In this document: positions 20,946-34,686 of the stretch, piece by piece
Layout of the letters: each line of letters begins with the position of its first letter
Numbering within the stretch: position 1 is the stretch's first letter
Assembly (NCBI GenBank): GCA_019235885.1
Contig: JAFAKB010000026.1
Location: 1 to 64,000, forward strand
Reading direction: 5' to 3'
DNA: 64,000 nucleotides
Source: Candidatus Eremiobacterota bacterium
GTDB taxonomy: Bacteria; Vulcanimicrobiota; Vulcanimicrobiia; Vulcanimicrobiales; Vulcanimicrobiaceae
Position numbers and translations under genes: made by a program
The notes under the pieces: generated by a model
What the model was told of the DNA's origin: nothing
What the model saw: the letters and a program-made list of their open reading frames with translations, nothing else
Databases searched by the model: none

Positions 20946-20962
20946 GGTAGCTGCCAGAAATG

Positions 20963-21104
20963 CTGCGCTACGCGAACTGCGAGAAGAACGCGTCGGCCGC
21001 CGCTGCGCTCGCCCCCACGGCGACCGCCCGCTCGCGCATGTTCCTCAGATTCGGTGCACGACGAGCGCGCGTCGGCGCACCGCCCGGGATTAGCGCGATC
21101 CGCC
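20963..21104 (-). pseudogene. Decayed fragment of manA 3' end
   Basis: These bases are clearly homologous to the last ~48 codons of manA at 28480-28620, in the same orientation. The shared blocks include CTCGCGCAT and GCGCGATCCGC, and the stop codon TAG and a C-terminus FFSQFA (manA: FFAQFP) are preserved. Several substitutions and small indels break the reading frame. It joins abruptly to a clpP fragment at about 21104. No promoter or start is attached, so it is non-functional debris marking a rearrangement. Confidence 0.75.
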
Positions 21105-21245
21105 CGGTCGACGAGATCCTGCGCGAACCTCTAGAGCGACGTCTACATGAGCGCGCTCGATGCGAAAGCGTACGGCATCATCGACGCCGTCCTCGACGGC
21201 ACGCACCGCAACGGCGAGGCCGCCGCTCAGAGCGAGCGTTCTTGA
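21105..21245 (+). pseudogene. Decayed fragment of clpP 3' end
   Basis: The sequence matches the final ~45 codons of clpP at 17000-17137. It reads PVDEILRE, then after a frameshift continues as [20 protein letters not shown] and THRNGEAA before a TGA at 21243-21245 (true Clp[22 protein letters not shown]). It is fused to a manA fragment on its left. The catalytic part of ClpP is absent. Source may be the clpP of this window or another paralog. Confidence 0.78.
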
Positions 21246-21317
21246 CGCCGCACGCTTTGTTGATTACGATGAGCTACCAGGCGAAAGGCCTGGACTCCAA
21301 CGGAAAGGAGGAATCGC

Positions 21318-21536
21318 GTGGCTAGCGATGAGACCCGACCGGAGTTGGAGCTCGTCCGGCAGCTGTCCGAGAGGATACGGGCTCTGGCGACGCTCAACGC
21401 CGATAACGTCAGGCAGCTAGCCGAGAGGAGCGCTCTCTTGGCTAGGATGCACAACGAAGCCGTCACGCAATTTGCAAGGGCTTCCGAGCTCCTGCAAAGG
21501 TTCGCCGAAAGGCTAGACGCCCGCCGAGCGACCTAG
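21318..21536 (+). CDS. Small helical (coiled-coil) protein
   Basis: A 72-residue, wholly helical, charged protein with heptad-like leucines (LVRQLSERIRALATLNADNV and on to LLQRFAERLDARR). The GTG start is supported by an excellent ribosome-binding site (AAAGGAGGA, ending 5 bases upstream). A small hairpin (21277-21293, CCAGGC/GCCTGG) lies just before it. It is the first intact gene inside the island that continues with the interrupted tRNA and the RiPP operon, but nothing links it directly to either. No family recognised. The following 248 bases up to the tRNA hold no gene that I can support. Confidence 0.6.
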   Translation: MASDETRPELELVRQLSERIRALATLNADNVRQLAERSALLARMHNEAVTQFARASELLQRFAERLDARRAT

Positions 21537-21784
21537 CAGACGCCTCGTTGTCGCTCGCCCCGTTCCCAGCACGGTGTGGGCATTGGCGGCCGAACGGACT
21601 CGCTCGACCCCCCCCCAGCACTCGAGCGGACGAGGCCGTACAGTTGCGGTGGATGCGTCGCGGTTCTCCCCAGCAAGAACGGACCCGCCTCCGTACGCCG
21701 TCGTCCGGACCACCCCAGCATCCGGACGGCCAAAAAGCAGACCCACGTCGCGACGCATTTCGCGGCGCCAGTATCGCAATCCAT

Positions 21785-22070
21785 GCGCCCGTAGCTCAAT
21801 GGTAGAGAAGGGGACCTGATAGGTGGGGTTCGTCACTCGAGCAATTGCAGGTCGCGGACGAAGGTTCGACACGTGGTTCGCCGCTGGGGGCGTCGTGCGT
21901 GGTCGGTCTGCAGCCTTTCGATCCCCGGCAATCGGCGCACGACGGTGCGAACGCGGCCGGAACATGCTTCGAGGGGTTCGGGTGTGCGAGCTCGGAACGA
22001 CCGGCCGCCCTTTGAGAGCAACGGCCTCCTAAGCCGTTGGTTGCGGGTTCGAATCCCGTCGGGCGTACCA
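21785..22070 (+). tRNA. tRNA-Arg(CCU) gene interrupted in the D arm
   Basis: Exon-like part 1 (21785-21803, plus AGAG) gives the acceptor 5' strand GCGCCCG, the D-stem GCTC and D-loop AATGGTA. Part 2 (from 22015) gives the rest: D-stem GAGC, anticodon arm ACGGC-CTCCTAA-GCCGT with anticodon CCT, T arm GCGGG-TTCGAAT-CCCGT, acceptor CGGGCGT and ACCA. Joined across the AGAG repeat they form a canonical 75-nt tRNA-Arg(CCU) with encoded CCA. The 211 intervening bases are structured. Whether the RNA is spliced or the gene is dead cannot be decided from sequence; every paired position is intact, which argues against old decay. The RiPP precursor begins 28 bases after it. Confidence 0.75.
21804..22014 (+). 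other. 211-bp structured insertion within tRNA-Arg
   Basis: The insertion is bounded by a 4-bp direct repeat AGAG (21804-21807 and 22015-22018). Its ends are complementary (AAGGGG near the left, CCCTTT near the right). Internal perfect helices include TTCGTC/GACGAA, CGTCGTGCGT/GCGCACGACG (10 bp with one G-U) and GCGGCCGG/CCGGCCGC (8 bp), plus a UUCG-capped hairpin GTGG-TTCG-CCGC. If it is an intron, the boundaries T|A...G|A would satisfy the group I end rule, but I could not find a convincing P7/guanosine-binding core. A small non-autonomous mobile element with a 4-bp target duplication is the main alternative. No protein-coding frame in it is credible. Confidence 0.6.
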
Positions 22071-22097
22071 TTTTCATTCAGAAGCTGGAGGTTCTGC

Positions 22098-22256
22098 ATG
22101 TCCAAGAAGGCCGACGTGCGTGAAGACGCCGCCAAGAGCGCACCGGAAGGGACCACGTCGTACGTGAAGCCCGAGGTGAAAACGCTCGACCAGCGCGACG
22201 TCTTGCGCGCGGTCGCGAAAGGATCGAAGTTCCCGGCACGCGGCTTCGCCGGCTGA
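22098..22256 (+). CDS. Candidate RiPP precursor peptide
   Basis: A 52-residue peptide with its own strong ribosome-binding site (GGAGG, 6 bases before ATG). The first ~40 residues are charged and leader-like. They contain SYVKPEVKTLDQRDVLRA (residues 21-38), a YxxP motif with following hydrophobic positions, which is the type of segment bound by PqqD-like recognition domains. The C-terminal tail KGSKFPARGFAG is small, Gly/Phe-rich and cysteine-free, and is the likely core. A hairpin separates it from the modification genes, and the next gene encodes a PqqD-like protein. It has no similarity that I know beyond the YxxP pattern. The precursor role is inferred from size, motif and context. Confidence 0.72.
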   Translation: MSKKADVREDAAKSAPEGTTSYVKPEVKTLDQRDVLRAVAKGSKFPARGFAG

Positions 22257-22279
22257 GATCTTCGAGGCCATGAGGTAGC

Positions 22280-22343
22280 CTCGGGCGCCGGCGCTCGGCT
22301 CGTCCGCAGCCAGCGTCGGCGCCCGAGCACCGTTGTTTCTTTT
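22280..22343 (+). terminator. Hairpin between precursor and modification genes
   Basis: A perfect 11-bp inverted repeat (CTCGGGCGCCG at 22280-22290, complement at 22317-22327) with a 26-base loop is followed by a T-rich stretch ending 22343. It should partly terminate transcription after the precursor gene, giving more precursor than enzymes, as in many RiPP operons. Confidence 0.62.
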
Positions 22344-22360
22344 CACGTGAGGAGACGAGG

Positions 22361-22630
22361 GTGTACCCGCTGCGTTCCGAGGGCGTGCAGGCTCGCAAAG
22401 TCGGACCCGACACGCTGATCCTACACTCCCTGCTCAAGCAATACCACGTGCTGAACCACGTCGCGGGCCGTATCTGGGATTTGGCCGACGGAACGCGCGG
22501 CGCCGACGAGATCGGCTCGATCGTCGCCGCCGAGTTCGCGGTCGACGAAGCGACCGCGCGCGCCGACGTCGTCAGCACGCTCGAGGCGCTCGCCGCGCTG
22601 CGCATCGTCGAGCTGGAACCGGCGCGGTGA
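22361..22630 (+). CDS. PqqD-like RiPP recognition element protein
   Basis: An 89-residue protein of the PqqD family. It has the N-terminal strand region, the conserved LILHSLLKQYHVLNHVAGRIWDLADGTR segment and the three-helix bundle ending in LAALRIVEL. PqqD-like proteins bind leader peptides and present them to radical SAM enzymes. The GTG start follows GAGGAGA. Its end overlaps the next gene by GTGA, implying coupled translation with the SPASM radical SAM enzyme. The YxxP segment of the peptide encoded just upstream is the probable ligand (inference). Confidence 0.85.
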   Translation: MYPLRSEGVQARKVGPDTLILHSLLKQYHVLNHVAGRIWDLADGTRGADEIGSIVAAEFAVDEATARADVVSTLEALAALRIVELEPAR

Positions 22631-23991
22631 GCGCGCAGCGCTATTTCGCCGCGCCAGTCCGCTGGCTGCGCAGCGACGAGACGCTGCTGGCCGTCAGCCG
22701 CGTCCGCCCGCGCTGGGCGTCGGTGAACGAGACGGCCGCCGCGATCGTGCAGTACTGCGAGAGCGACGGCGGTCGTTCGGCCGACGAGATCCACGCCGAC
22801 TTCGAAGCGCGCTTCGGCCCCGTCGCGCGCGGCGACCTCGGCGATTGGCTCGCCACGCTGGTGCGCACGGGGCTGCTCGCGGGCGAACGGGATTTCGCCG
22901 CCCAGGCGCCGCTCGGCTTCGACGCCTATCGGGTCGAGCATCTGTACGTCGAGCTACTCGCGCGCTGCAATTTGCGGTGCGTGCACTGCTTCATGGGCGG
23001 CGCGCCCGAGCGCACCGAGCGGCTGAGCGCGAACGAAGTGTTCGCGCTGCTCGAAGAGTTCGCCGCGAGCGGCGGGCGCTACGTCACGCTCTCCGGCGGC
23101 GAGCCGCTGATCTATCCCGAGTTCGAGGAGGTCGCGCGGCGCGTCGTGCAGCTCGGGATGTACGGCACGGTGATCACCAACGGCGTGAGGCTGCGCGCGC
23201 CGCAGCTCGCGCTGCTCGACGAGCTCGGATTCAACGTCGCGATCAGCCTCGACGGGATCACGCCGGAGGTCAACGAGCGCATCCGCGGGCGCAGCTCGCT
23301 ACCGACGATGGCGACGATCGAGCGCGCGCTCGCGGTGCTCGGACCCGACCGCGTCGTCCTCTCGTTCACGCCGGTGAAAGCGAACCTCGGCGAGCTCGAG
23401 AAGCTCTTCAGCTTCGTCGAGGAGCGGGGGATCCGCCGCCTCAACCTCTCGATCTACGAAGAGGTCGGGCGCGCGTCCGAGTTCGCCGGCACGCTCGCGC
23501 TCGACGACGCCGACCGGCTTCGCTTGATGCGCACCGTCTACCACAAAGCCGTCGAATTGGCGGGGCGGGTCGAGATCGACCTGAACGACACGCGCGACAT
23601 CTTGAGCCAGTTCAGCGTCGACCGCACGTCGGCCGAGCTGCACCCGCTCTGGCGCGGCGTGCGCGTCACCTCGTCGGGCGACGTCTACCCGAGCACGTTC
23701 GGAGCGGTCGAGCGCTTCCACCTCGGCAACGTGCGTGAGGTGCCGTTTCGCACCGTCCTCGCCTCCGGCGTGCTGCGCGAGCTGTACGCGGCGCTGATCG
23801 ACCGCGACGCGAAGACGCCGAAGTGCCGCGAGTGCACGTGGCGGCAGATCTGCCGCGGCGGCAGCGTCGCGTCGGCATATTGCGCGACCGGCGAGCTCTA
23901 CTCGCCCGATCCCTACTGCGAAGCGTACCTCGACGTCTTTCCGAGCATCGCCGCGGCGCTCGCCGAGCTCGCGCCCGCGCCGGTCGCATGA
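22627..23991 (+). CDS. Radical SAM/SPASM peptide maturase with PqqD-like N-domain
   Basis: A 454-residue radical SAM enzyme. Residues 1-95 resemble a second PqqD-like winged-helix domain (NETAAAIVQYCESDGG). The SAM-cluster motif is C114xxxC118xxC121 (CNLRCVHC), followed by TLSGGEPL. The C-terminal SPASM domain carries C400, C403, C409, C419 and C431 (KCRECTWRQICRGG), enough for auxiliary iron-sulfur clusters. Such enzymes install C-C, C-S or C-O crosslinks or epimerise residues in ribosomal peptides. The core candidate has no Cys, so thioether formation is unlikely; a carbon-carbon or other side-chain modification is more plausible (inference). The gene overlaps its neighbours on both sides. 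Confidence 0.88.
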   Translation: MSAQRYFAAPVRWLRSDETLLAVSRVRPRWASVNETAAAIVQYCESDGGRSADEIHADFEARFGPVARGDLGDWLATLVRTGLLAGERDFAAQAPLGFDAYRVEHLYVELLARCNLRCVHCFMGGAPERTERLSANEVFALLEEFAASGGRYVTLSGGEPLIYPEFEEVARRVVQLGMYGTVITNGVRLRAPQLALLDELGFNVAISLDGITPEVNERIRGRSSLPTMATIERALAVLGPDRVVLSFTPVKANLGELEKLFSFVEERGIRRLNLSIYEEVGRASEFAGTLALDDADRLRLMRTVYHKAVELAGRVEIDLNDTRDILSQFSVDRTSAELHPLWRGVRVTSSGDVYPSTFGAVERFHLGNVREVPFRTVLASGVLRELYAALIDRDAKTPKCRECTWRQICRGGSVASAYCATGELYSPDPYCEAYLDVFPSIAAALAELAPAPVA

Positions 23992-24905
23992 AAGCCTGCT
24001 TCGCGATCCCGAACCGCGAAGCGTTGTTCGCCCAGTGCGCGCGGCGCGCACCGGTGCGCGCCGCGTTCGAGTTCTTCGGAGCGGCGGTCGAGGTGCGCGC
24101 GAGCTCGGAGGCGCTGATCGAGCGGCTGCGCCGCGTCTACCGCCACTTCAGCGTTGCGCGCGCGGTCCCGTCCGCGCGGTTGATCCTGCTGGAACCCGGC
24201 GCCGGTTTTGACGACTACGTGCTGCTGGCGGACTGGTTCGGCTGGGGCATGCGCATCGCGAACGACGCGCTGCTGCACTACTACGCCTCGAAGCTGCTGC
24301 GGCTGTGGGTCGCCGAGCGCAGCGATCCCGAGTACGCGACCTTGCACGCGGCCTCGCTGGCCGGGCCGTCGGGCGGCGGCGTCGTGCTGATCGGCGAGGC
24401 GGCGGCCGGGAAGACGACGCTGACGCTGCGGCTGCTCGAGCGCGGATTCCGCTACCTCTCCGACGACACGACGGTGATCCGGCGGCGCGATCTCACCTGC
24501 GTTCCGTTCCCGATGGCGTTCGTGCTGCGCGCTGGCGAGGGGCAGCCCGACATCGCGCTGCTCGACGAGCCGCGCTGGCTCCTCGAGCGCTGGGACGCGA
24601 GCGGCGCGGCGTTCGCGCCCACCGTGCTCTACTTTCTCGGCGACCATCCGGCGCTCGGGCCGGGCGGTTTTCGCCGCATCTCGCCGGTCGAGACGGCACT
24701 GCGCGTGCTGCGCAACCTCGTCATGCCGCTCGGCAGCGACGCAAGCGCGTACACGGCGGCGCCGCAGAACTTCGACTTCGCGTGCCGGCTCGCGCTCGCG
24801 GCCGACGGTACGGAGATGAGCTCCAACGACCTCGACCGCGCGCTCGACGCGCTGGTCGCCGACTACCGGCTGCGGTTCCCGATTCGATCGGAAGGAGCGG
24901 CATGA
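23988..24905 (+). CDS. HprK-like P-loop kinase/phosphatase-type protein
   Basis: A 305-residue protein with a C-terminal HPr-kinase-like fold: P-loop GEAAAGKT (residues 136-143), LRLLERGFRYLSDDTTVI with the SDD motif (158-160) typical of HprK-related proteins, and a preceding helical domain that lacks the HPr-kinase sensor region. HprK-like proteins occur in RiPP loci together with PqqD proteins; some phosphorylate the peptide (as in paeninodin lasso peptides), others have unknown roles. ATGA overlaps at both ends place it firmly in the operon. Its substrate here might be the precursor, whose core contains a serine. That is inference only. Confidence 0.8.
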   Translation: MKACFAIPNREALFAQCARRAPVRAAFEFFGAAVEVRASSEALIERLRRVYRHFSVARAVPSARLILLEPGAGFDDYVLLADWFGWGMRIANDALLHYYASKLLRLWVAERSDPEYATLHAASLAGPSGGGVVLIGEAAAGKTTLTLRLLERGFRYLSDDTTVIRRRDLTCVPFPMAFVLRAGEGQPDIALLDEPRWLLERWDASGAAFAPTVLYFLGDHPALGPGGFRRISPVETALRVLRNLVMPLGSDASAYTAAPQNFDFACRLALAADGTEMSSNDLDRALDALVADYRLRFPIRSEGAA

Positions 24906-26263
24906 GCGACATCACCTTGGTGAACACGGTCCTTCCGAGCGAGGTGAAGGTCCCACCGCAGGGGATTCTCTACCTCACTGCGGCGCTCGAAGCCGCTGGG
25001 TTCGACGTCGATATCCGCGACTATCAGCTCTGCGAGTTCGACGCGCCGTGGGAGCCGGCGACGCTCGCGCGCTTCGTCGAGGGTTCGGCACCCGTGATCG
25101 GTTTCAGCGCGATGAGTTATGCGCTCCCGCTGGTCATCGCCACGGCGCGGCTCGTCAAGGAGCGCGCGCCGGAGAAAATCATCGTCGCCGGCGGGATCGG
25201 ACCGTCCGGCGCGGGCGCGCCGCTGCTCGACTACTGCCCGGCGATCGACGTCATCGTCGACGGCGAAGGCGAGCGCACGATCGTCGAGCTGATGCAGGCG
25301 ATTCGCGACGGGCGCGAGCTCGGCTCGGTGGCGGGGATCATCCACCGCGCCGGCGGGCGCGCGCGCGCGAACGCGCCGCGTCCGCGCATCGCCTCGATGG
25401 TCGAGCTCGCGCCGCCGGCGTACCATCGCGTCGACTTCTCGCGATACCGGCTGGTCGACAGCCAGTTCGGGCGCGGCTGCCCGTTCCGGTGCACGTTTTG
25501 CGACATCGCGCCGTTCTGGAACCGGCTCAACACGCACCGCCCGATCGAGCACTACGCCGACGAGCTGGAGCGCTTGGTCAACGTGCACGGCGCGCGCGAC
25601 GTCTTCATCGTCGACGACACGTTCGTTCTCGCGCGCAAGTCGATCCTACAGTTCTGCGGCGAGATCGAGCGGCGCGGTATTGAGTTCGAGTGGGGCTGCT
25701 ACGCGCGCGTCGACCTGATGGACGAAGAGCTGATCGAGCGCATGGCCGCCGCGGGATGCCGCAAGGTGTTCTACGGCGTCGAGTCCGGCTCGGACGCGGT
25801 GCTCGGCGAGATCGTCAAGGACACGACCGTGCAGATGATCATCGACGCGGTGACGCGCTCGCTGCGCCACTTCTCGTTCGTCACCGCCTCGTTCATGTGG
25901 GGCTTCCCCGGCGAGTCGCTCGACGATCTGCGGCAGACCGTGGCGTTCTTGCTCTACCTCACCTCGCTCGGCGCCTCGCCGCAACTCAACCTGGTCCTAC
26001 CGTACTCGTACTCGACGCTCTACAAGCAGTACCGCGACCAGATCCGCTTCGATCCGCGGTACTCCTCGCAGCTCCAGTTCTACGAAGGCGACGACCGCGA
26101 GTGGCTGTGCGCGATGATCGCCGAGCGCCCGGATCTCTTCTCGGCGTTCTACCAGCTCCCCACTCAGGCGTTCGAGGAGAAATGGAGCTACCTCGAAGAG
26201 ATCGGGCTTTCGCCGCACGAGCTGCAGTACGCGTACGATCACCCGGTGCCGGCGGCGCGATGA
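24902..26263 (+). CDS. B12-binding-domain radical SAM enzyme
   Basis: A 453-residue radical SAM protein of the B12-binding class. The N-terminal ~150 residues form the cobalamin-binding Rossmann domain (PPQGILYLTAALEAAGFDV ... VIVDGEGERTIVELM). The SAM-cluster motif is C193xxxC197xxC200 (CPFRCTFC), and the barrel includes VFYGVESGSDAVL and MWGFPGES. Such enzymes typically methylate unactivated carbons or rearrange substrates. The B12-domain signature DxHxxG is not obvious, as in many family members that still bind cobalamin base-off. ATGA overlaps link it to the HprK-like gene and to the synthetase-like gene. Peptide methylation or rearrangement is a reasonable guess. Confidence 0.88.
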   Translation: MSDITLVNTVLPSEVKVPPQGILYLTAALEAAGFDVDIRDYQLCEFDAPWEPATLARFVEGSAPVIGFSAMSYALPLVIATARLVKERAPEKIIVAGGIGPSGAGAPLLDYCPAIDVIVDGEGERTIVELMQAIRDGRELGSVAGIIHRAGGRARANAPRPRIASMVELAPPAYHRVDFSRYRLVDSQFGRGCPFRCTFCDIAPFWNRLNTHRPIEHYADELERLVNVHGARDVFIVDDTFVLARKSILQFCGEIERRGIEFEWGCYARVDLMDEELIERMAAAGCRKVFYGVESGSDAVLGEIVKDTTVQMIIDAVTRSLRHFSFVTASFMWGFPGESLDDLRQTVAFLLYLTSLGASPQLNLVLPYSYSTLYKQYRDQIRFDPRYSSQLQFYEGDDREWLCAMIAERPDLFSAFYQLPTQAFEEKWSYLEEIGLSPHELQYAYDHPVPAAR

Positions 26264-28413
26264 GGTACGACGCCGCGGCGGTCGAGGCGAAGTGGCAGGC
26301 GCGGTGGGCGGAGGAGCGCTGCTTTGCAGCCGACGCCGTGCCGGACGGCGAGCCGTTCTTCAACTTCGACGGCGGACCGTTTCCGAACGGTCCGCTGCAC
26401 ATGGGGCACGTGCGCACGTTCACGCTCGGCGACGTCATGGCGCGCTACCAGCGGATGCGCGGGCGGCGCGTCCTCTACTGTTTCGAGTTCGACGCGTTCG
26501 GGCTCCCCAACGAGCTCGCGGCGGAGGCGCTGGGCGTCACGCCGGAAGAGCTGACGCAAGCGAACATCCTGCGGATGCAGCGGCAAATGGTCCGCTTGGG
26601 TCTGAGCTACGACTGGGAACACGTCCCCGCGACGTGCGAGCCGCGCTATTACCGCTGGACGCAATGGCTGTTCCTTGCGCTGCGAGAGCGCGGCCTCGTC
26701 TACCGCGCCGCGGCGGACCTCAACTGGTGCCCCAGCTGCAGCACGACGCTCGCGCACATGCAGGTCGAGGACGGCCGGTGCTGGCGCTGCGAGAGCGCCG
26801 TCGAGACGCGCACGCTCACCCAGTGGTACGTCGCGATCTCGCGCTACTCGGCGATCCTTGCCGAAGGCCTCGACGAGCTCAGCGGGTTCAGCGACCGCGT
26901 CCGCAACGTGCTGCGCGGATTTCTCGGCGCGACGAGCGGGATCGAGGTCGAGCTCGCGCCGGCGGACGCTTCGGGCCTTGCGCTCAGAGCGTTCGTCGCG
27001 GACGAGCTTGCGAACGCCGCACCGGCGTACGCCGCCGTCGCTCCGGGACACCCCGTGCTCGCGGCGCTGCTTCCGGACGCGAGCGGCGAGCTCGCCGAAT
27101 GGTCGCGGCCGGCCGGCCGCGCGCGCCGGCGAACCGGGGGGCGCGCGGACGACGCGCTCGACGGATTCGACACGGGCCTGCGCGTCCGGTTGCCGGATCG
27201 CACGACGGTGATTCCGGTCTTCGTCGCGCGTTACGCCGAGCAGGGCTTCGCGACCGGAATCGAACTCGGCGTCCCGGCGAAGAGTCCGCGCGACCGCGCG
27301 TTCGCCGAACGGCACGGGCTCGCGTGGCGCGGCGGCGATGCGGCGCCGCTTCGCGGCCGGCGCGCGACGCACTATCACGTTCACGACTGGCTCGTCTCGC
27401 GCCAGCGCGCATGGGGAACGCCGATACCGATCGTGCACTGCACGGCGTGCGGCGAGGTGCCGGTCCCGGAGGATCGGCTTCCGGTGCGCGTTCCATCGCG
27501 TCCGCCGAACGGCGAGCCCGGCGGTCTTGCGGCGGTGCCGGGATTCGCCGAGACGGTGTGCCCGCGTTGCGATGCGCCCGCGCGGCGCGAGACCGATACG
27601 CTGGATTGCTACTTCGACGTCGTCTGGTGTTTTCTCGGCTGCGCCGCGCGGCTCGACGACGGCTTCCGCTTCTCGGCAGCGGACTTCGCGCCGTGGATGC
27701 CGGTCGACTGGTTTCACAACGGCCTGGACTCGTTCTTCTACATGCACCTCTACCGTTTCATCGGCCGGGTGCTCTACGAGATGGGAATCCTGGCGGAGCC
27801 CGAGCCGATTCGCCGCTACGCCGGGCACGACGCGGTGCTGCTCGCTGGCCGCAAAATGAGCAAGCACCACGGCAACACCGTCGCGCCGGACGAGATCGTC
27901 GAACGCGTCGGCGCCGACGTCTTGCGCTTGCAGATCCTCGGCGCGGCGAATCCGCTCAAGAGCGTCGAATGGTCGGCGTCGGGCGTGGAGCGCGCGCAGC
28001 GTTTCCTCGCGGATGCGTGGTCGCTCGTCTGCCGCGTCGCGGAAGACGTGCGTGACGGCGACGGCCCGTTGCGCGCTGCCGGCGACGAGCGCCGCCTACC
28101 GCTCGAGGACGCGGTCGATCAAAGCGTTCGCCGCATCACCGCATTCGTGGAGCGTTACCAGTACGCCGGCTGCATCCGCGAGTTGCAGAGCCTCTTGCGG
28201 CGCTTGCGCGCCGGGCTCGAGCGGCTCGAGCGGCGGCCCGACGACGAGCGGCTGCGCGCTGCGCTGGTCGCGAGCGCACGCCGGTTCGTGCAGGTGCTCG
28301 CACCGTTCGCACCGCACGCGGCCGAAGAGATGTGGGAACGCCTCGGCGGCGATGGTCTGGTCGCGGTCGCGCCGTGGCCCGGCGTCCTCCCCGCGTTCGG
28401 CGCGGCAGCCTGA
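26260..28413 (+). CDS. Leucyl-tRNA-synthetase-like protein in RiPP operon
   Basis: A 717-residue class Ia aminoacyl-tRNA synthetase homolog, closest in layout to LeuRS. It keeps HMGH (residues 47-50), KMSKH (532-536), WDAFGLP-like FEFDAFGLPNELAAEA, and zinc-type Cys pairs (157/160, 174/177, 394/397, 434/437). The CP1 insertion is present but eroded: the TTRPDT editing motif of LeuRS is replaced by unrelated sequence. The protein is shorter than true LeuRS (about 860) because the C-terminal portion is reduced. Start overlaps the radical SAM stop (ATGA). The context makes a housekeeping role unlikely. It may activate an amino acid, or transfer one from tRNA, for peptide tailoring. Confidence 0.85.
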   Translation: MRYDAAAVEAKWQARWAEERCFAADAVPDGEPFFNFDGGPFPNGPLHMGHVRTFTLGDVMARYQRMRGRRVLYCFEFDAFGLPNELAAEALGVTPEELTQANILRMQRQMVRLGLSYDWEHVPATCEPRYYRWTQWLFLALRERGLVYRAAADLNWCPSCSTTLAHMQVEDGRCWRCESAVETRTLTQWYVAISRYSAILAEGLDELSGFSDRVRNVLRGFLGATSGIEVELAPADASGLALRAFVADELANAAPAYAAVAPGHPVLAALLPDASGELAEWSRPAGRARRRTGGRADDALDGFDTGLRVRLPDRTTVIPVFVARYAEQGFATGIELGVPAKSPRDRAFAERHGLAWRGGDAAPLRGRRATHYHVHDWLVSRQRAWGTPIPIVHCTACGEVPVPEDRLPVRVPSRPPNGEPGGLAAVPGFAETVCPRCDAPARRETDTLDCYFDVVWCFLGCAARLDDGFRFSAADFAPWMPVDWFHNGLDSFFYMHLYRFIGRVLYEMGILAEPEPIRRYAGHDAVLLAGRKMSKHHGNTVAPDEIVERVGADVLRLQILGAANPLKSVEWSASGVERAQRFLADAWSLVCRVAEDVRDGDGPLRAAGDERRLPLEDAVDQSVRRITAFVERYQYAGCIRELQSLLRRLRAGLERLERRPDDERLRAALVASARRFVQVLAPFAPHAAEEMWERLGGDGLVAVAPWPGVLPAFGAAA

Positions 28414-28469
28414 GCGGGACGCCGGCCGGCCAGTGCGCGAGCCACACGATCACTGCCGCGCCCGCGACG
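28412..28469 (-). pseudogene. Fragment resembling exporter permease gene
   Basis: About 58 bases between the synthetase-like gene and manA match the permease coding region at about 17304-17362, same orientation. Translated on the minus strand it reads VAGAAVIVWLAHWPAGVPL against IAGATAIVLFAHWPASVPL in the permease. It has no start or downstream domain. It mirrors the manA/clpP debris at the other end of the island. Confidence 0.7.
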
Positions 28470-28479
28470 GGACGCTGCG

Positions 28480-29550
28480 CTAAGGGAACTGCGCGAAGAA
28501 CGCATCGGCCGCCGCCCGGTCCACGGCAGCGGTCGCCCGCTCGCGCATCTTCCGCAGATTCGGCTGCGGGTGGACGACGAGCGCGCGCGTCGGCTCGCCG
28601 CCCGGGATCAGCGCGATCCGCTCGAAGCTCGCCGGCGTCACCACGCTCTGCCACGGCTCGAGCACGGCGCTCGGGCCGGGCGCGTCGACGGCGGGCCCGT
28701 CGATCCGCAGGTGCGCTTCCATCGCGGTGATCGTGAGCGGCAAACCGTCGGTCACGAGGTACGCTTCGTCGCGCGTGATCGCGACACGCTCGACCAGGAA
28801 GTTGCGGTCGGCGACCAGCAGCGCGCGCTCGAGCCCTTCCTCGCGAAACTCCAGCGGCGCCACCGCGCCGGGAAACGTCGCGCGGAAGTCGAGCACGTCG
28901 CCGGCTTTTTGCAGGTGCAGCTCGCGCGGCTTGCCGTCGGCGCCGACCCGGTTCCAGTCGAAGATGCGGTACGTCAGATCGCTGGCTTGCTGCGTCTCGA
29001 ACAGCTGAATCCCGGCGCCGATCGCGTGCAGCGTTCCGGCCGGCAGATAAAATACGTCGTGCGGATGGACGGCGATGCGGCGCAACACGTCGCCGAGCGT
29101 CCCGTCGGCGACGCGGCGCTCGTACTCCGCGCGCGTCACGTCGCGCGTCCAGCCGAGCACCAGCTCGGCGCCGGGCTCGCAGGCGAGGATGTACCAGCAC
29201 TCCGTCTTGCCGTTCGGCTGGCCTTCGACGCGCTGCGCGTACGCGTCGTCCGGATGGACTTGCACCGAGAGCGGCTCGCGCGCGTCGATGATCTTCGTCA
29301 GCACCGGAAACCTGCGCGCCGGATCGATCGCTCCCGTCAGCGCCTCGTGCAGCTCGCCGCGCAGGTCTGCGAGCGTCTTGCCGGTGAGGGCGCCGTTCGC
29401 GACGCGGTTCTCGTCCCAGCACTCCCACGACTCGCCGAGCCGCTGGTGCGGATCGCCCGCCTTTCCGTAGTGCTTGACCAGGGCGTCGCCGCCCCAGATC
29501 GCGGGCGCCTCTTTCGGTTCCAGAATGTAGGGATAGAGCCGGACACTCAC
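28480..29550 (-). CDS. manA: Mannose-6-phosphate isomerase, type I
   Basis: A 356-residue zinc-dependent cupin-fold isomerase that interconverts fructose-6-phosphate and mannose-6-phosphate. Metal-site motifs are visible: LSVQVHPDD (Q and H), TECWYIL (E) and PAGTLHAIG (H). The N-terminal IWGGDALVKHYGK and GESWECWDEN segments match short bacterial ManA enzymes. The GTG start has no strong ribosome-binding site; TAGGGT lies 7 bases upstream, so this gene too may be leaderless. It probably supplies GDP-mannose or related precursors for envelope sugars. A decayed copy of its 3' end lies at 20963-21104. Confidence 0.9.
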   Translation of the reverse strand: MSVRLYPYILEPKEAPAIWGGDALVKHYGKAGDPHQRLGESWECWDENRVANGALTGKTLADLRGELHEALTGAIDPARRFPVLTKIIDAREPLSVQVHPDDAYAQRVEGQPNGKTECWYILACEPGAELVLGWTRDVTRAEYERRVADGTLGDVLRRIAVHPHDVFYLPAGTLHAIGAGIQLFETQQASDLTYRIFDWNRVGADGKPRELHLQKAGDVLDFRATFPGAVAPLEFREEGLERALLVADRNFLVERVAITRDEAYLVTDGLPLTITAMEAHLRIDGPAVDAPGPSAVLEPWQSVVTPASFERIALIPGGEPTRALVVHPQPNLRKMRERATAAVDRAAADAFFAQFP

Positions 29551-31555: not shown

Positions 31556-32711
31556 ACGTCCGGCCTTTCCATGCGCCGCCCGCGCCGTGCAGGTGGCGCC
31601 GGGCCGAGTCGATCGTCATCCCCGTGTAGAGCAGCGCGGCAAGCGGAAGCGCGAGCGCGTTCATCGGCCGCATGCCGTAGAGCCGCAGCGTCGGCGCGTA
31701 CGCGAGCGCCATCGTTCCCCACGCGATGATTCCAGGAAACGCCACGTCGGCGCGGCGGCGGCGCGCGCCGGCGAACGTCGCCGCGACCGGGACGTAGGAG
31801 AGCAGCAGCATCCCCGCGACCGTGCCCGCGAGCACCAGCGGTGAATAGCGCAGCTGCGTGTACGCGGTGCGCGCGACCATCGACCAAATCTCCTGGAGCG
31901 AGCGGTACGGGCGCACGCTGCGCGAGCGCGTCGTCAACTCGAGCCGCAGCCCGCCGCCCTGCGCTTTCACCGCGGTCGCGAGGGCGCAGTCGTCGATCAG
32001 CTCGTCTTTGATGCGCTCCAGTCCGCCGATTCCGCGCAGCGCTTCGTCGGCGATGAGCACGCAGCCGCCGGCCGCGCCCGCGGTCGCGCGGCGATCGTCG
32101 TTCACCCATGCGAACGGGTACAGCATCCGAAAGAAAAAGACGAACGCCGGAATCAGCAGACGCTCCCACGGCGTGACGGAGTGCAGCGCGACCATCTGCG
32201 AGACGAGCGCGCGCCGTTCGCCGAGCGCGGTTGCGACGAGTCTGGCGAGCGTGTCGGGATCGTGCTCCACGTCGGCGTCGGTGAACCACCAGAACACGGG
32301 ACGCGCGCCGGCTGCGCGCGCCGCTTCGACGCCGCTCGCGAGCGCCCACACCTTGCCGGTCCAACCGTCGGGAGTCGGCGTGCCGTCGACCATGCTCGCG
32401 GGGTGCTGCGCCGCCGATGCGGCGATCGTCGCGCGCGCGACGGCGCCGGTGCCGTCGTCGCTGCGGTCGTCGACCAGCGTGATCGCGAACCGGCCGGGAT
32501 AGCGTTGCGCGAGCAGCGAGGAGAGCGTTTGCGCGACGACGTCGGCCTCGTTTCGCGCCGGCACGACGGCGTGCACGTCCGGCGCCGGGTCGCCGGGCGC
32601 CGGATCGCGGAGGCCGTCGGCACGCGAATCCCAAAACCGTCCTCGAGCGACGACCAGCCCCACCCACGCCGCCGCCGAGATCCACGCCGCGACCTTCAAC
32701 GCCTTGACCAT
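31536..32711 (-). CDS. hpnB: Hopanoid-associated glycosyltransferase HpnB
   Basis: A 391-residue family 2 glycosyltransferase with membrane anchors. An N-terminal helix precedes the GT-A domain: VHAVVPARNEADVVAQTLSSLL, VDDRSDDGTGAVAR, the DxD-type WWFTDADVEHD, and KDELIDDCAL (QxxRW-region equivalent). Three to four hydrophobic helices follow (about residues 275-370). This layout matches hopene-associated HpnB proteins. It would modify extended hopanoids or a related lipid; the sugar donor is unknown. Its start codon overlaps the start region of shc, transcribed in the opposite direction, and its end overlaps hpnG. Confidence 0.82.
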   Translation of the reverse strand: MVKALKVAAWISAAAWVGLVVARGRFWDSRADGLRDPAPGDPAPDVHAVVPARNEADVVAQTLSSLLAQRYPGRFAITLVDDRSDDGTGAVARATIAASAAQHPASMVDGTPTPDGWTGKVWALASGVEAARAAGARPVFWWFTDADVEHDPDTLARLVATALGERRALVSQMVALHSVTPWERLLIPAFVFFFRMLYPFAWVNDDRRATAGAAGGCVLIADEALRGIGGLERIKDELIDDCALATAVKAQGGGLRLELTTRSRSVRPYRSLQEIWSMVARTAYTQLRYSPLVLAGTVAGMLLLSYVPVAATFAGARRRRADVAFPGIIAWGTMALAYAPTLRLYGMRPMNALALPLAALLYTGMTIDSARRHLHGAGGAWKGRTFRPERR

Positions 32712-34686
32712 TCACGCAACGCCTTCGAATCGCGAGTCCGACCGCCCCGCCGCGCCGGCGCTGGACGACGCGATCGCGCGCGCGGTCGACGCGCTCTTTC
32801 AGCTCCAGCATCCGGACGGGTACTGGTGGGCCGAGCTGCAGTCGAACGTCTCGATCACGGCGGAGGTCGTGCTGCTGCACCACGTGTGGGGACGCTTCGA
32901 AAAGGTGCCGCGTGCGGCGGCGGAGCGGTACTTTCGCGGCGAGCAGCGCGAGCACGGCGGGTGGGAGCTCGCTTTCGGCGACGGCGGCGAGCTGAGCGTC
33001 ACCGTCGAGGCGTACATGGCCCTGCGCCTGCTCGGCGTTGCGGCCGACGATCCGGCCTTGCGGCGCGCGCGTGAGTTCGTGCTCGCGCGCGGCGGAATCA
33101 CGCGCACGCGCATCTTCACCAAGATGCACCTCGCGCTGATCGGCGCGTACGAGTGGGCGGGGCTGCCCGCGCTGCCGCCGTGGCTGATGGTCCTTCCCGA
33201 GCGCGGTCCGTTCTCGATCTACGAGCTTTCGAGCTGGGCGCGCGGCAGCACCGTGCCGCTGATCCTGCTCTTCGACCGCAAGCCCGTCTACGCGCCGGTG
33301 CTGCAGCTCGACGAGCTGTACGCCGAAGGCCGTGCGAACGCGCAGTTTGCGCTTCCAGCCGCGAACGGCGCCACCGAGCGCTTCTTCAACGGCGTCGACC
33401 GCGTGCTGAAATGGAGCGAGCGAACAGGACTCGTGCCGTTTCGCGCGCGCGGCATCGAGCTGGCCGAGCAGTGGACGGTCGAGCGGCAAGAGCACACCGG
33501 CGACTGGGGCGGGATCATCCCCGCGATGCTCAACGCGATGCTGGCGCTGCGCGCGATCGGCTACGACGCCAGCGATCCCGTCGTCGTGCGCGGCTGGTCG
33601 GCGATCGACGCCTTCACGATCACCGCGAACGGCGCGTACCGCGTGCAGCCGTGCATCTCGCCGGTCTGGGACACCGGCTTGGCGGTGCGCGCGCTGACCG
33701 ACGCCGGCGTGCCGCGCGACGATCCGCGGCTGGTCAGCGCCGCGACGTGGCTGCTCGAGAAGCAGATCGTCGCGCGCTACGGCGACTGGTCGGTGAAGAA
33801 CCGCACCGGAAAACCGGGCGGCTGGGCGTTCGAGTTCGAGAACTCCTGGTATCCCGACGTCGACGACACCGCGGTCGTCGCGATGGCGCTCGCCGCGGTC
33901 GAGCATCCGCAGCCCGAGCGCGTGCGCGGCGCGATCGCGCGCGCGGAGGAGTGGGTCGCGACGATGCAGTGCAGGACCGGCGGCTGGGCCGCCTTCGACG
34001 TCGACAACGACCAGGACTGGCTCAACCGCATCCCCTACGGCGACCTGCGGGCGATGATCGATCCGAGCACCGCCGACGTCACCGCGCGCGTGCTCGAGAT
34101 GCTCGCGCGCTGCGAGCTGCACGGCTTCGGCCGCGCGCGCGTCGAGCGCGGTCTGCGCTTTTTGCTGAACGAGCAGGAAGCCGACGGCGCCTGGTTCGGC
34201 CGCTGGGGCGTGAACTACGTGTACGGCACGAGCGGCGCGCTCGCCGCGTTGTGCGCCCTTCGACAAGCTCGGGATGACGTGGAGCCGGCTCAAGACGACG
34301 CGACGCTGCGGGCGATCGTGCGCGGCGCGGTGTGGCTGAAGAGCGTGCAGCAAGCGAACGGCGGTTGGGGCGAAACGACCGACAGCTATCGCGATCCTGC
34401 GCTGCGCGGGAGCGGTCCGCCGACGGCGAGTCAAACGGCGTGGGCGCTGATCGGCCTGATCGCGAGCGCGCAGCGTTTGCCGCAGATCGCGGAGGCGTTC
34501 GTGCCGTCGATCGAGCGGGGCGTCGAGTACCTGCTGCGCGCGCAGCGTGCCGACGGCAATTGGGATGAGCCGGAGTTCACCGGCACCGGCTTCCCGCAGC
34601 ACTTCTACTTGAACTACCACGCCTACCGGCTGTACTTTCCGCTCGCCGCGCTCGGGCGCTACGCGGCGTTCGCAGCCGCCCGTTAA
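32704..34686 (+). CDS. shc: Squalene-hopene cyclase
   Basis: A 660-residue class II triterpene cyclase that converts squalene to hopene/hopanol at the membrane. The protonating DxDD motif is DVDD (residues 385-388, in YPDVDDTA). Multiple QW-type repeats are visible (QxxDGxW near 34-41, GGWAFEFENSW, QCRTGGWAAFD, QQANGGWGE, QRADGNWDE). Length is normal. The TTG start overlaps the divergent hpnB start by 8 bases; no other start is available before the conserved N-terminal helix. A copy of the dispersed REP-like element lies in frame within the variable loop near residue 520. Confidence 0.93.
   Translation: MTIHATPSNRESDRPAAPALDDAIARAVDALFQLQHPDGYWWAELQSNVSITAEVVLLHHVWGRFEKVPRAAAERYFRGEQREHGGWELAFGDGGELSVTVEAYMALRLLGVAADDPALRRAREFVLARGGITRTRIFTKMHLALIGAYEWAGLPALPPWLMVLPERGPFSIYELSSWARGSTVPLILLFDRKPVYAPVLQLDELYAEGRANAQFALPAANGATERFFNGVDRVLKWSERTGLVPFRARGIELAEQWTVERQEHTGDWGGIIPAMLNAMLALRAIGYDASDPVVVRGWSAIDAFTITANGAYRVQPCISPVWDTGLAVRALTDAGVPRDDPRLVSAATWLLEKQIVARYGDWSVKNRTGKPGGWAFEFENSWYPDVDDTAVVAMALAAVEHPQPERVRGAIARAEEWVATMQCRTGGWAAFDVDNDQDWLNRIPYGDLRAMIDPSTADVTARVLEMLARCELHGFGRARVERGLRFLLNEQEADGAWFGRWGVNYVYGTSGALAALCALRQARDDVEPAQDDATLRAIVRGAVWLKSVQQANGGWGETTDSYRDPALRGSGPPTASQTAWALIGLIASAQRLPQIAEAFVPSIERGVEYLLRAQRADGNWDEPEFTGTGFPQHFYLNYHAYRLYFPLAALGRYAAFAAAR
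34257..34278 (-). repeat. REP-like element inside shc coding sequence
   Basis: CCTTCGACAAGCTCGGGATGAC is a copy of the dispersed element in reverse orientation. It is translated in the cyclase frame as part of ALRQARDDV, a loop between QW-repeat helices, and does not interrupt the gene. Confidence 0.6.

What the first reader, a model, noticed from the sequence alone, without database searches (positions are those of the whole stretch)
22098..28413. Unfamiliar RiPP-like operon: precursor, PqqD protein, two radical SAM enzymes, HprK-like protein and a tRNA-synthetase homolog
Six overlapping genes follow one another with ATGA/GTGA junctions after a 52-residue peptide gene that has its own ribosome-binding site, a YxxP leader motif and a short cysteine-free C-terminus. 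The combination of SPASM and B12 radical SAM enzymes with an HprK-like protein and a LeuRS-like enzyme matches no RiPP class that I can name. No protease, lanthipeptide, lasso-cyclase or exporter gene is adjacent. The product may be a small modified tail of the peptide.
Basis: partly seen in the sequence, partly recalled or inferred. Interest (0 to 1): 0.92.

Follow-up and report, generated by a model that had tools for sequence, protein, structure and literature searches.

The report
Peptide-maturation island with own tRNA–synthetase pair
A small mobile DNA island, found in two unrelated bacteria, carries a conserved mini-peptide with the enzymes to modify it, plus its own altered tRNA, its own altered tRNA-charging enzyme and a small gene crammed with the codon that tRNA reads; this looks like a natural way of building an extra amino acid into a protein, although that function is not yet tested.

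Summary
The operon is real: 52-aa peptide, PqqD, SPASM radical SAM, HprK-like, B12 radical SAM and LeuRS-like genes (five genes overlap, not six). It is part of a larger island (window ~21107–28473) inserted at the 3' end of a manA-like gene. A complete second copy lies in a Rhodobacter MAG of another phylum. The peptide is conserved, but its tail is invariant, not variable.

Upstream of the peptide, in both copies, lies a tRNA-Arg(CCU)-like gene whose D loop holds a ~211-nt insert and lacks the ArgRS determinant A20. Before it lies a 72–76-codon helical ORF in which AGG, the codon of that tRNA, makes up 7/12 and 6/9 of Arg codons (background 2.4% and 6%); the only codons identical between copies are three AGGs. 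The 'LeuRS' is a second paralogue without the C-terminal domain and most editing residues; its leucine pocket is changed where engineers mutate it for non-canonical amino acids.

Best reading: a pyl-like code-expansion cassette, in which a peptide-derived amino acid is charged onto the dedicated tRNA and inserted at AGG codons. The parts are shown; charging, amino acid and decoding are inferred. AGG/CGN swaps at two sites argue against strict reassignment.

The parts
20962..21106 (-). displaced, degraded copy of the 3' end of the manA-like (PMI) gene; left boundary of the island
   Evidence: 80% identical over 154 bp to the real end near 28474-28624; in six of nine same-genus relatives read, the HlyD gene lies directly next to PMI, i.e. 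an empty site
21242..21270 (+). sigma-70-like promoter before the AGG-rich ORF (consensus match only)
   Evidence: 1 found against 0.1 expected
21318..21536 (+). 'cc': 72-aa helical ORF, GTG start behind AAGGAGG, 7 of 12 Arg codons are AGG
   Evidence: gapless homologue at L039 4081-4311; AGG enrichment p 3e-9 and 3e-6
21565..21719 (+). four CCCAGC repeats behind cc (21565, 21614, 21669, 21714), possible pairing partners of CTGGG at 21884 in the tRNA insert
   Evidence: densest CCCAG cluster of the window; seven CCCAG at the same place in L039; pairing only suggestive
21785..22070 (+). tRNA*: tRNA-Arg(CCU)-like gene, exons 21785-21803 and 22015-22070 (CCA encoded), 211-nt insert 21804-22014 in the D loop; G1.U72, A73, no A20; exact insert ends ambiguous by 4 nt
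   Evidence: exons folded by ARAGORN as tRNA-Arg(cct); same in L039
22098..22256 (+). 52-aa precursor-like peptide, MSKK...SYVKPEVKTLDQRDVLRAVAKGSKFPARGFAG
22280..22327 (+). hairpin between the peptide gene and pqqD (16-nt arms, 94% complementary); a hairpin also at L039 5217-5246
22361..22630 (+). PqqD-family protein (GTG start)
   Evidence: Pfam PqqD E 4e-13
22627..23991 (+). SPASM radical SAM protein with N-terminal PqqD-like segment (CNLRCVHC motif)
23988..24905 (+). HprK-like P-loop protein (GEAAAGKTT)
24902..26263 (+). B12-binding radical SAM protein (RGCPFRCTFC motif), nearest model ApyD, below cut-off
26260..28413 (+). LeuRS*: 717-aa LeuRS paralogue with changed leucine pocket and decayed editing site
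28474..28624 (-). real 3' end of the manA-like gene (28480-29550); right boundary of the island

Best explanation
The island is a self-contained cassette that makes an amino acid and codes for it, organised like the pyrrolysine operon. (1) The PqqD protein recruits the 52-aa peptide; the SPASM and B12 radical SAM enzymes and the HprK-like protein modify its invariant C-terminal part, and host peptidases release an unusual amino acid. (2) LeuRS*, a LeuRS paralogue with an altered pocket and a decayed editing site, activates that amino acid and charges the dedicated tRNA* (anticodon CCU), which ArgRS should charge poorly because A20 is missing and the D loop is interrupted by the ~211-nt insert. 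(3) tRNA* inserts the residue at AGG codons of the small helical ORF 'cc', perhaps helped by pairing of CTGGG in the tRNA insert with the CCCAG repeats behind that ORF. Shown: anatomy, conservation in two phyla, mobility, AGG enrichment and retention, loss of A20, pocket and editing changes. Inferred: that LeuRS* charges tRNA*, the identity and origin of the amino acid, the decoding at AGG, and the recruiting role of the repeats.
For: Same order and same parts, including the AGG-rich ORF, the tRNA with insert, the peptide and all five enzymes, in a Rhodobacter MAG of another phylum. tRNA* exons are 93% identical, the insert 53%. Both hosts have a separate normal tRNA-Arg(CCU) with A20 and separate LeuRS genes. 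A20 is the main ArgRS determinant in bacteria (PMC9976931); the AGG-to-Met tRNA(CCU) of some Bacilli likewise lacks A20 and has A73 (PMC8629427). LeuRS* in both copies: M40G, L41G, Y43F, Y499C, Y527F, no His aligned at 537, T252 to A or I, D342 to S. Positions 40, 41, 499, 527, 537 plus T252A are those changed in engineered LeuRS for non-canonical amino acids (PMC11869211). Catalytic parts of LeuRS* are 66-72% identical between copies, the CP1 editing domain only 34%. AGG is 7/12 (p 3e-9) and 6/9 (p 3e-6) of Arg codons in cc. Of 23 identical residues in cc the only identical codons are three AGGs. AGG can be given to a non-canonical residue in E. coli with a CCU tRNA (PMC4652775). Peptide C-terminus invariant.
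Against: At aligned Arg sites of cc, AGG faces CGG (site 54) and CGC (site 69), and at site 32 it faces Lys: these behave like ordinary Arg/Lys exchanges. Both hosts keep a normal tRNA-Arg(CCU) and use AGG elsewhere, so decoding would be ambiguous without recruitment. AGG sites do not occupy a helix face distinct from CGN sites. D345 of the editing site is kept. Nothing shows that the insert is removed or tolerated. Complementarity of repeats and insert is only marginal against shuffled inserts (p 0.13 and 0.05), and similar CCCAGC arrays occur elsewhere in both genomes. Only two copies are known.
Confidence: 0.42

Rival explanations
1. tRNA-dependent peptide extension: LeuRS* charges tRNA*, and the amino acid is transferred not by the ribosome but to the C-terminus of the invariant peptide, which serves as a scaffold as in pearlins; the radical SAM enzymes then modify it. 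The HprK-like protein might activate the peptide carboxylate.
For: Invariant peptide C-terminus as in scaffold peptides; dedicated tRNA next to the peptide gene; [quoted passage not shown] abstracts).
Against: No LanB-like PEARL, GNAT or FemX-type transferase in either copy. Does not explain the AGG-rich ORF or why the dedicated tRNA keeps a complete CCU anticodon arm.
Confidence: 0.2
2. Regulation: AGG codons mean arginine. The AGG-rich ORF is a leader whose translation senses how much tRNA* is charged (attenuation-like), or tRNA* is an extra arginine tRNA that supports translation of the AGG-rich small protein. LeuRS* serves another purpose.
For: AGG exchanges with CGG and CGC at two aligned sites; the ORF is first in the unit behind a promoter-like site; AGG codons are many, as cognate codons are in amino-acid leader peptides (own knowledge).
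Against: The ORF is 72-76 codons with a conserved helical protein sequence, and AGGs are scattered over it rather than clustered. An extra arginine tRNA should keep A20 and an uninterrupted D loop. No terminator-like site follows.
Confidence: 0.17
3. Self-resistance: the modified peptide or its product poisons the host LeuRS, and LeuRS* is a resistant LeuRS that keeps charging tRNA-Leu (as for agrocin 84, from memory).
For: A second LeuRS inside a biosynthetic unit is a known form of immunity (own knowledge); pocket changes would fit resistance.
Against: The leucine pocket is rebuilt at five positions and the C-terminal domain is missing, which makes leucine charging of host tRNA-Leu doubtful. 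Does not explain tRNA* or the AGG ORF. No exporter in either copy.
Confidence: 0.1
4. Coincidence: an ordinary RiPP island whose tRNA is an intron-bearing housekeeping-type tRNA-Arg and whose LeuRS-like gene is a fellow traveller.
For: tRNA genes and stray synthetase paralogues do occur on mobile islands (own knowledge); insert of intron-like size at the same place in both copies.
Against: Order and spacing of all parts are kept over a divergence at which most synonymous sites of cc have changed. No group I or II intron match. Both hosts already have tRNA-Arg(CCU).
Confidence: 0.11

Closest known systems
Pyrrolysine (pyl) operon: PylS, tRNA-Pyl, PylBCD
   Same: One mobile unit holding a dedicated tRNA, a dedicated synthetase and radical SAM biosynthesis genes (own knowledge of pyl)
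   Different: Class I LeuRS-derived synthetase instead of class II PylS; sense codon AGG instead of UAG; a ribosomal peptide with PqqD instead of lysine as the starting point; candidate target ORF inside the unit; function not shown
AGG reassignment to methionine in uncultivated Bacilli (PMC8629427)
   Same: tRNA(CCU) without A20 and with A73 reads AGG as something other than Arg
   Different: Genome-wide code change with the ordinary MetRS; no dedicated synthetase, no biosynthesis genes, not on an island; here the hosts keep a normal tRNA-Arg(CCU)
Engineered E. coli LeuRS for non-canonical amino acids (PMC11869211) and engineered AGG reassignment (PMC4652775)
   Same: Same pocket positions changed (40, 41, 499, 527, 537) and T252 lost; AGG read by a CCU tRNA
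   Different: Laboratory constructs; natural LeuRS* also lacks the C-terminal domain and has its own tRNA with a D-loop insert
PEARL / pearlin pathways (3-thiaglutamate, ammosamide; PMC9303977, PMC11117183)
   Same: Conserved scaffold-like peptide, tRNA involvement, product made on the peptide
   Different: No LanB-like ligase here; PEARLs use housekeeping aminoacyl-tRNA, here tRNA and synthetase are encoded in the unit
PQQ and mycofactocin pathways (PqqA/D/E, MftA/B/C)
   Same: Invariant short peptide, PqqD protein, SPASM radical SAM enzyme, small-molecule-type precursor
   Different: Different peptide, additional B12 radical SAM and HprK-like proteins, tRNA and synthetase; no equivalog model reaches its cut-off

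Membership tests
RiPP (ribosomal peptide modified by PqqD/radical SAM enzymes) | small precursor gene conserved next to modifying enzymes | tested here: met
   52/51-aa frame conserved with identical last 15 residues in two phyla
RiPP (ribosomal peptide modified by PqqD/radical SAM enzymes) | peptide is actually modified | not testable with these tools
   needs mass spectrometry
PQQ, mycofactocin, lasso, sactipeptide systems | match to the curated equivalog models of their enzymes | tested here: not met
   best scores far below the cut-offs for all five enzymes
Housekeeping LeuRS | leucine pocket (M40, L41, Y499, Y527, H537 in E. coli numbering) | tested here: not met
   G, G, C, F and no aligned His in both copies
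Housekeeping LeuRS | C-terminal domain and complete editing motif | tested here: not met
   C-terminal domain absent and T252 lost, D345 kept; the leucine-specific insertion is absent too, but the host's own LeuRS also lacks it
Class I synthetase of the LeuRS lineage | HIGH and KMSKS signatures, anticodon-binding domain, lineage | tested here: met
   HMGH and KMSK kept; TIGR00396 E 8e-143 though below the equivalog cut-off; Anticodon_1 E 4e-11
Bacterial tRNA-Arg charged by ArgRS | A20 in the D loop | tested here: not met
   U20 or C20 followed by the insert; host tRNA-Arg(CCU) genes have A20
Group I or II intron in a tRNA | match to an intron covariance model | tested here: not met
   no Rfam intron hit in either copy
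Natural genetic code expansion cassette (as pyl) | dedicated synthetase, dedicated tRNA and amino-acid biosynthesis genes in one unit | tested here: inconclusive
   all components present and conserved together, but charging is not shown
Natural genetic code expansion cassette (as pyl) | codon with a new meaning in a target ORF | tested here: inconclusive
   AGG enriched and retained but exchanges with CGN at two sites
PEARL / pearlin pathway | LanB-like peptide aminoacyl-tRNA ligase | tested here: not met
   none among the genes of either copy

The most novel reading that the evidence does not exclude
A natural, horizontally mobile genetic-code-expansion cassette in which a non-canonical amino acid excised from a ribosomal peptide is charged by a LeuRS-derived synthetase onto a D-loop-expanded tRNA(CCU) and inserted at AGG sense codons of one dedicated small protein: a further genetically encoded amino acid beyond Sec and Pyl, read from a sense codon and made on a RiPP scaffold.
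Probability: 0.33. Interest if true: 0.98.

Novelty: categorically new. Interest (0 to 1): 0.9.

Why it matters
I found no described system that combines a RiPP maturation set with its own tRNA and its own synthetase. If the cassette recodes AGG, it is a new natural code expansion, on a sense codon, in a mobile unit of seven protein genes and one tRNA, and it would supply a ready LeuRS-derived orthogonal synthetase/tRNA pair. If it instead feeds a peptide ligation, it is still the first tRNA-dependent peptide pathway I know of with a dedicated tRNA. Either way it makes the question of how further amino acids enter the code directly testable.

Tried and rejected
Other copies: the whole phylum of the host (149 genomes), 397 genomes of the family, 385 of the class and 398 of the phylum of the Rhodobacter copy, its genus, 48 further proteobacterial genomes (no positive control in that set), plasmids and viral contigs gave no third copy. 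The B12 enzymes of G009 and G005 (L010, L011) have unrelated neighbours.

Group I intron: considered because exon ends and insert size fit in the window copy; rejected for lack of an Rfam match, and in L039 the exon would not end in U. tmRNA-like molecule: no tag ORF and no Rfam match.

Insert folding: not more stable than shuffles in the window copy (z 0.2), only mildly in L039 (z -2.0).

Helix-face test for AGG residues: no difference from CGN.

CCCAGC array as a genome-wide marker of further targets: not specific.

AlphaFold model of LeuRS* from two sequences: unusable, pLDDT 38; the HprK-like model was not finished.

Filing as a known lasso, sactipeptide or PQQ system: no matching equivalog.
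Full report
WHAT IS THERE. No exporter, protease, lanthipeptide or lasso gene is adjacent.

THE UNIT IS LARGER AND IS AN ISLAND. The 3' end of the manA-like gene occurs twice, as a degraded copy at 20962-21106 and as the real end at 28474-28624 (80% identical). In six of nine same-genus relatives read, the HlyD-type gene lies directly beside the manA-like gene, so the site is empty there. The inserted segment is therefore about 21107-28473.

A SECOND COPY IN ANOTHER PHYLUM. The only relative found in the 84,980-species collection is in a Rhodobacter MAG (L039). The phylum of the window's genome, as held, had no other. L039 has the same order and the same parts, with protein identities of 67% (B12 radical SAM), 61% (SPASM), 57% (peptide), 55% (PqqD), 54% (LeuRS-like), 43% (HprK-like) and 33% (small ORF). 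The peptide's last 15 residues, AVAKGSKFPARGFAG, are identical. That is not a variable core but the pattern of a cofactor precursor or scaffold.

THE tRNA. Between the small ORF and the peptide, both copies have the 5' part GCGCCCGTAGCTCAATGG(T/C) of a tRNA, about 211 nt of other sequence, and then the 3' part AGAGC...CGGGCGTACCA. With the insert left out, ARAGORN folds a tRNA-Arg(CCU) in both copies (G1.U72 in the acceptor stem). Exons are 93% identical, the insert 53%. ARAGORN finds nothing in the raw sequence; Rfam sees only the 3' part and no intron. D-loop position 20 is U or C, whereas the separate housekeeping tRNA-Arg(CCU) of each genome has A20. A20 is the main determinant for bacterial ArgRS (PMC9976931). 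In the Bacilli that reassigned AGG to Met, tRNA(CCU) also lacks A20 and has A73 (PMC8629427).

THE SYNTHETASE. The genome has a normal LeuRS as well (831 aa). Aligned with it and with E. coli LeuRS, LeuRS* of both copies keeps HMGH and KMSK. It changes M40 to G, L41 to G, Y43 to F, Y499 to C and Y527 to F, and has no His aligned at 537 (a one-residue gap lies close by). The threonine-rich editing motif is gone (T252 to A or I; D342 to S; D345 kept), as is the C-terminal domain. The leucine-specific insertion of the E. coli enzyme is also missing, but the host's own LeuRS lacks it too, so that absence is not diagnostic. Catalytic segments are 66-72% identical between the copies, the editing domain only 34%. 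Engineers of LeuRS for non-canonical amino acids randomise exactly M40, L41, Y499, Y527 and H537 and add T252A (PMC11869211). So LeuRS* probably does not handle leucine (inference).

THE AGG-RICH ORF. The ORF at 21318-21536, with a strong ribosome-binding site and a promoter-like site upstream, aligns without gaps to L039 4081-4311 (score 94, shuffle maximum 50). AGG, the codon of the dedicated tRNA, is 7 of 12 and 6 of 9 Arg codons, against 2.4% and 6% in surrounding genes (p 3e-9, 3e-6). Apart from Met, 23 residues are identical; 20 use different codons, and the three identical codons are AGG at 43, 61 and 65. Retention of one codon while all other identical residues have changed codon is the strongest sign that the codon itself matters. 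Against strict reassignment, AGG faces CGG at 54 and CGC at 69.

REPEATS. Four CCCAGC (window) and seven CCCAG (L039) lie just behind that ORF and are the densest clusters in either sequence. The tRNA insert has one CTGGG in each copy. In the window the next bases are GG and three of four repeats begin with C (the fourth with U, a wobble match); in L039 they are AA and six of seven repeats begin with T. Against shuffled inserts the excess is only p 0.13 and 0.05, and similar arrays occur elsewhere in both genomes. I treat pairing as a lead.

MECHANISM. I favour a pyl-like cassette: peptide-derived amino acid, LeuRS*, tRNA*, AGG in the small protein. Steps shown: composition, conservation, mobility, codon bias, loss of ArgRS and leucine determinants. 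Steps inferred: charging, chemical identity, decoding, recruitment. The main rivals are a PEARL-like use of the charged tRNA on the peptide, ordinary arginine decoding with a regulatory role of the AGG ORF, self-resistance, and coincidence.

LIMITS. Only two copies; both genomes are contig assemblies, and the second is a MAG with two further LeuRS genes. Literature searches in the open-access library found no such system, but most subscription papers and bioRxiv are not held. Structure prediction with two sequences failed.

Noticed in passing
window 20962-21106 and 28474-28624: About 150 bp at the 3' end of a manA-like gene is duplicated (80% identity) around the island although no integrase is encoded; how the island moves is unknown.
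   Followed up: partly
window 21804-22014; L039 4719-4930: A ~211-nt insert in a tRNA D loop at the same place in both copies with no Rfam match; could be an undescribed self-splicing intron or a retained RNA domain.
   Followed up: partly
window 22280-22327; L039 5217-5246: Strong hairpin between the peptide gene and pqqD in both copies, probably an mRNA processing or attenuation element that lets the peptide be made in excess.
   Followed up: partly
G149 contigs C7 and C23: The Rhodobacter MAG holds two further LeuRS genes besides LeuRS*, possibly contamination or an extra paralogue.
   Followed up: no
window 32704-34686: 660-aa ORF that looks like a squalene-hopene cyclase beside a glycosyltransferase-like ORF; judged from the sequence only.
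   Followed up: no
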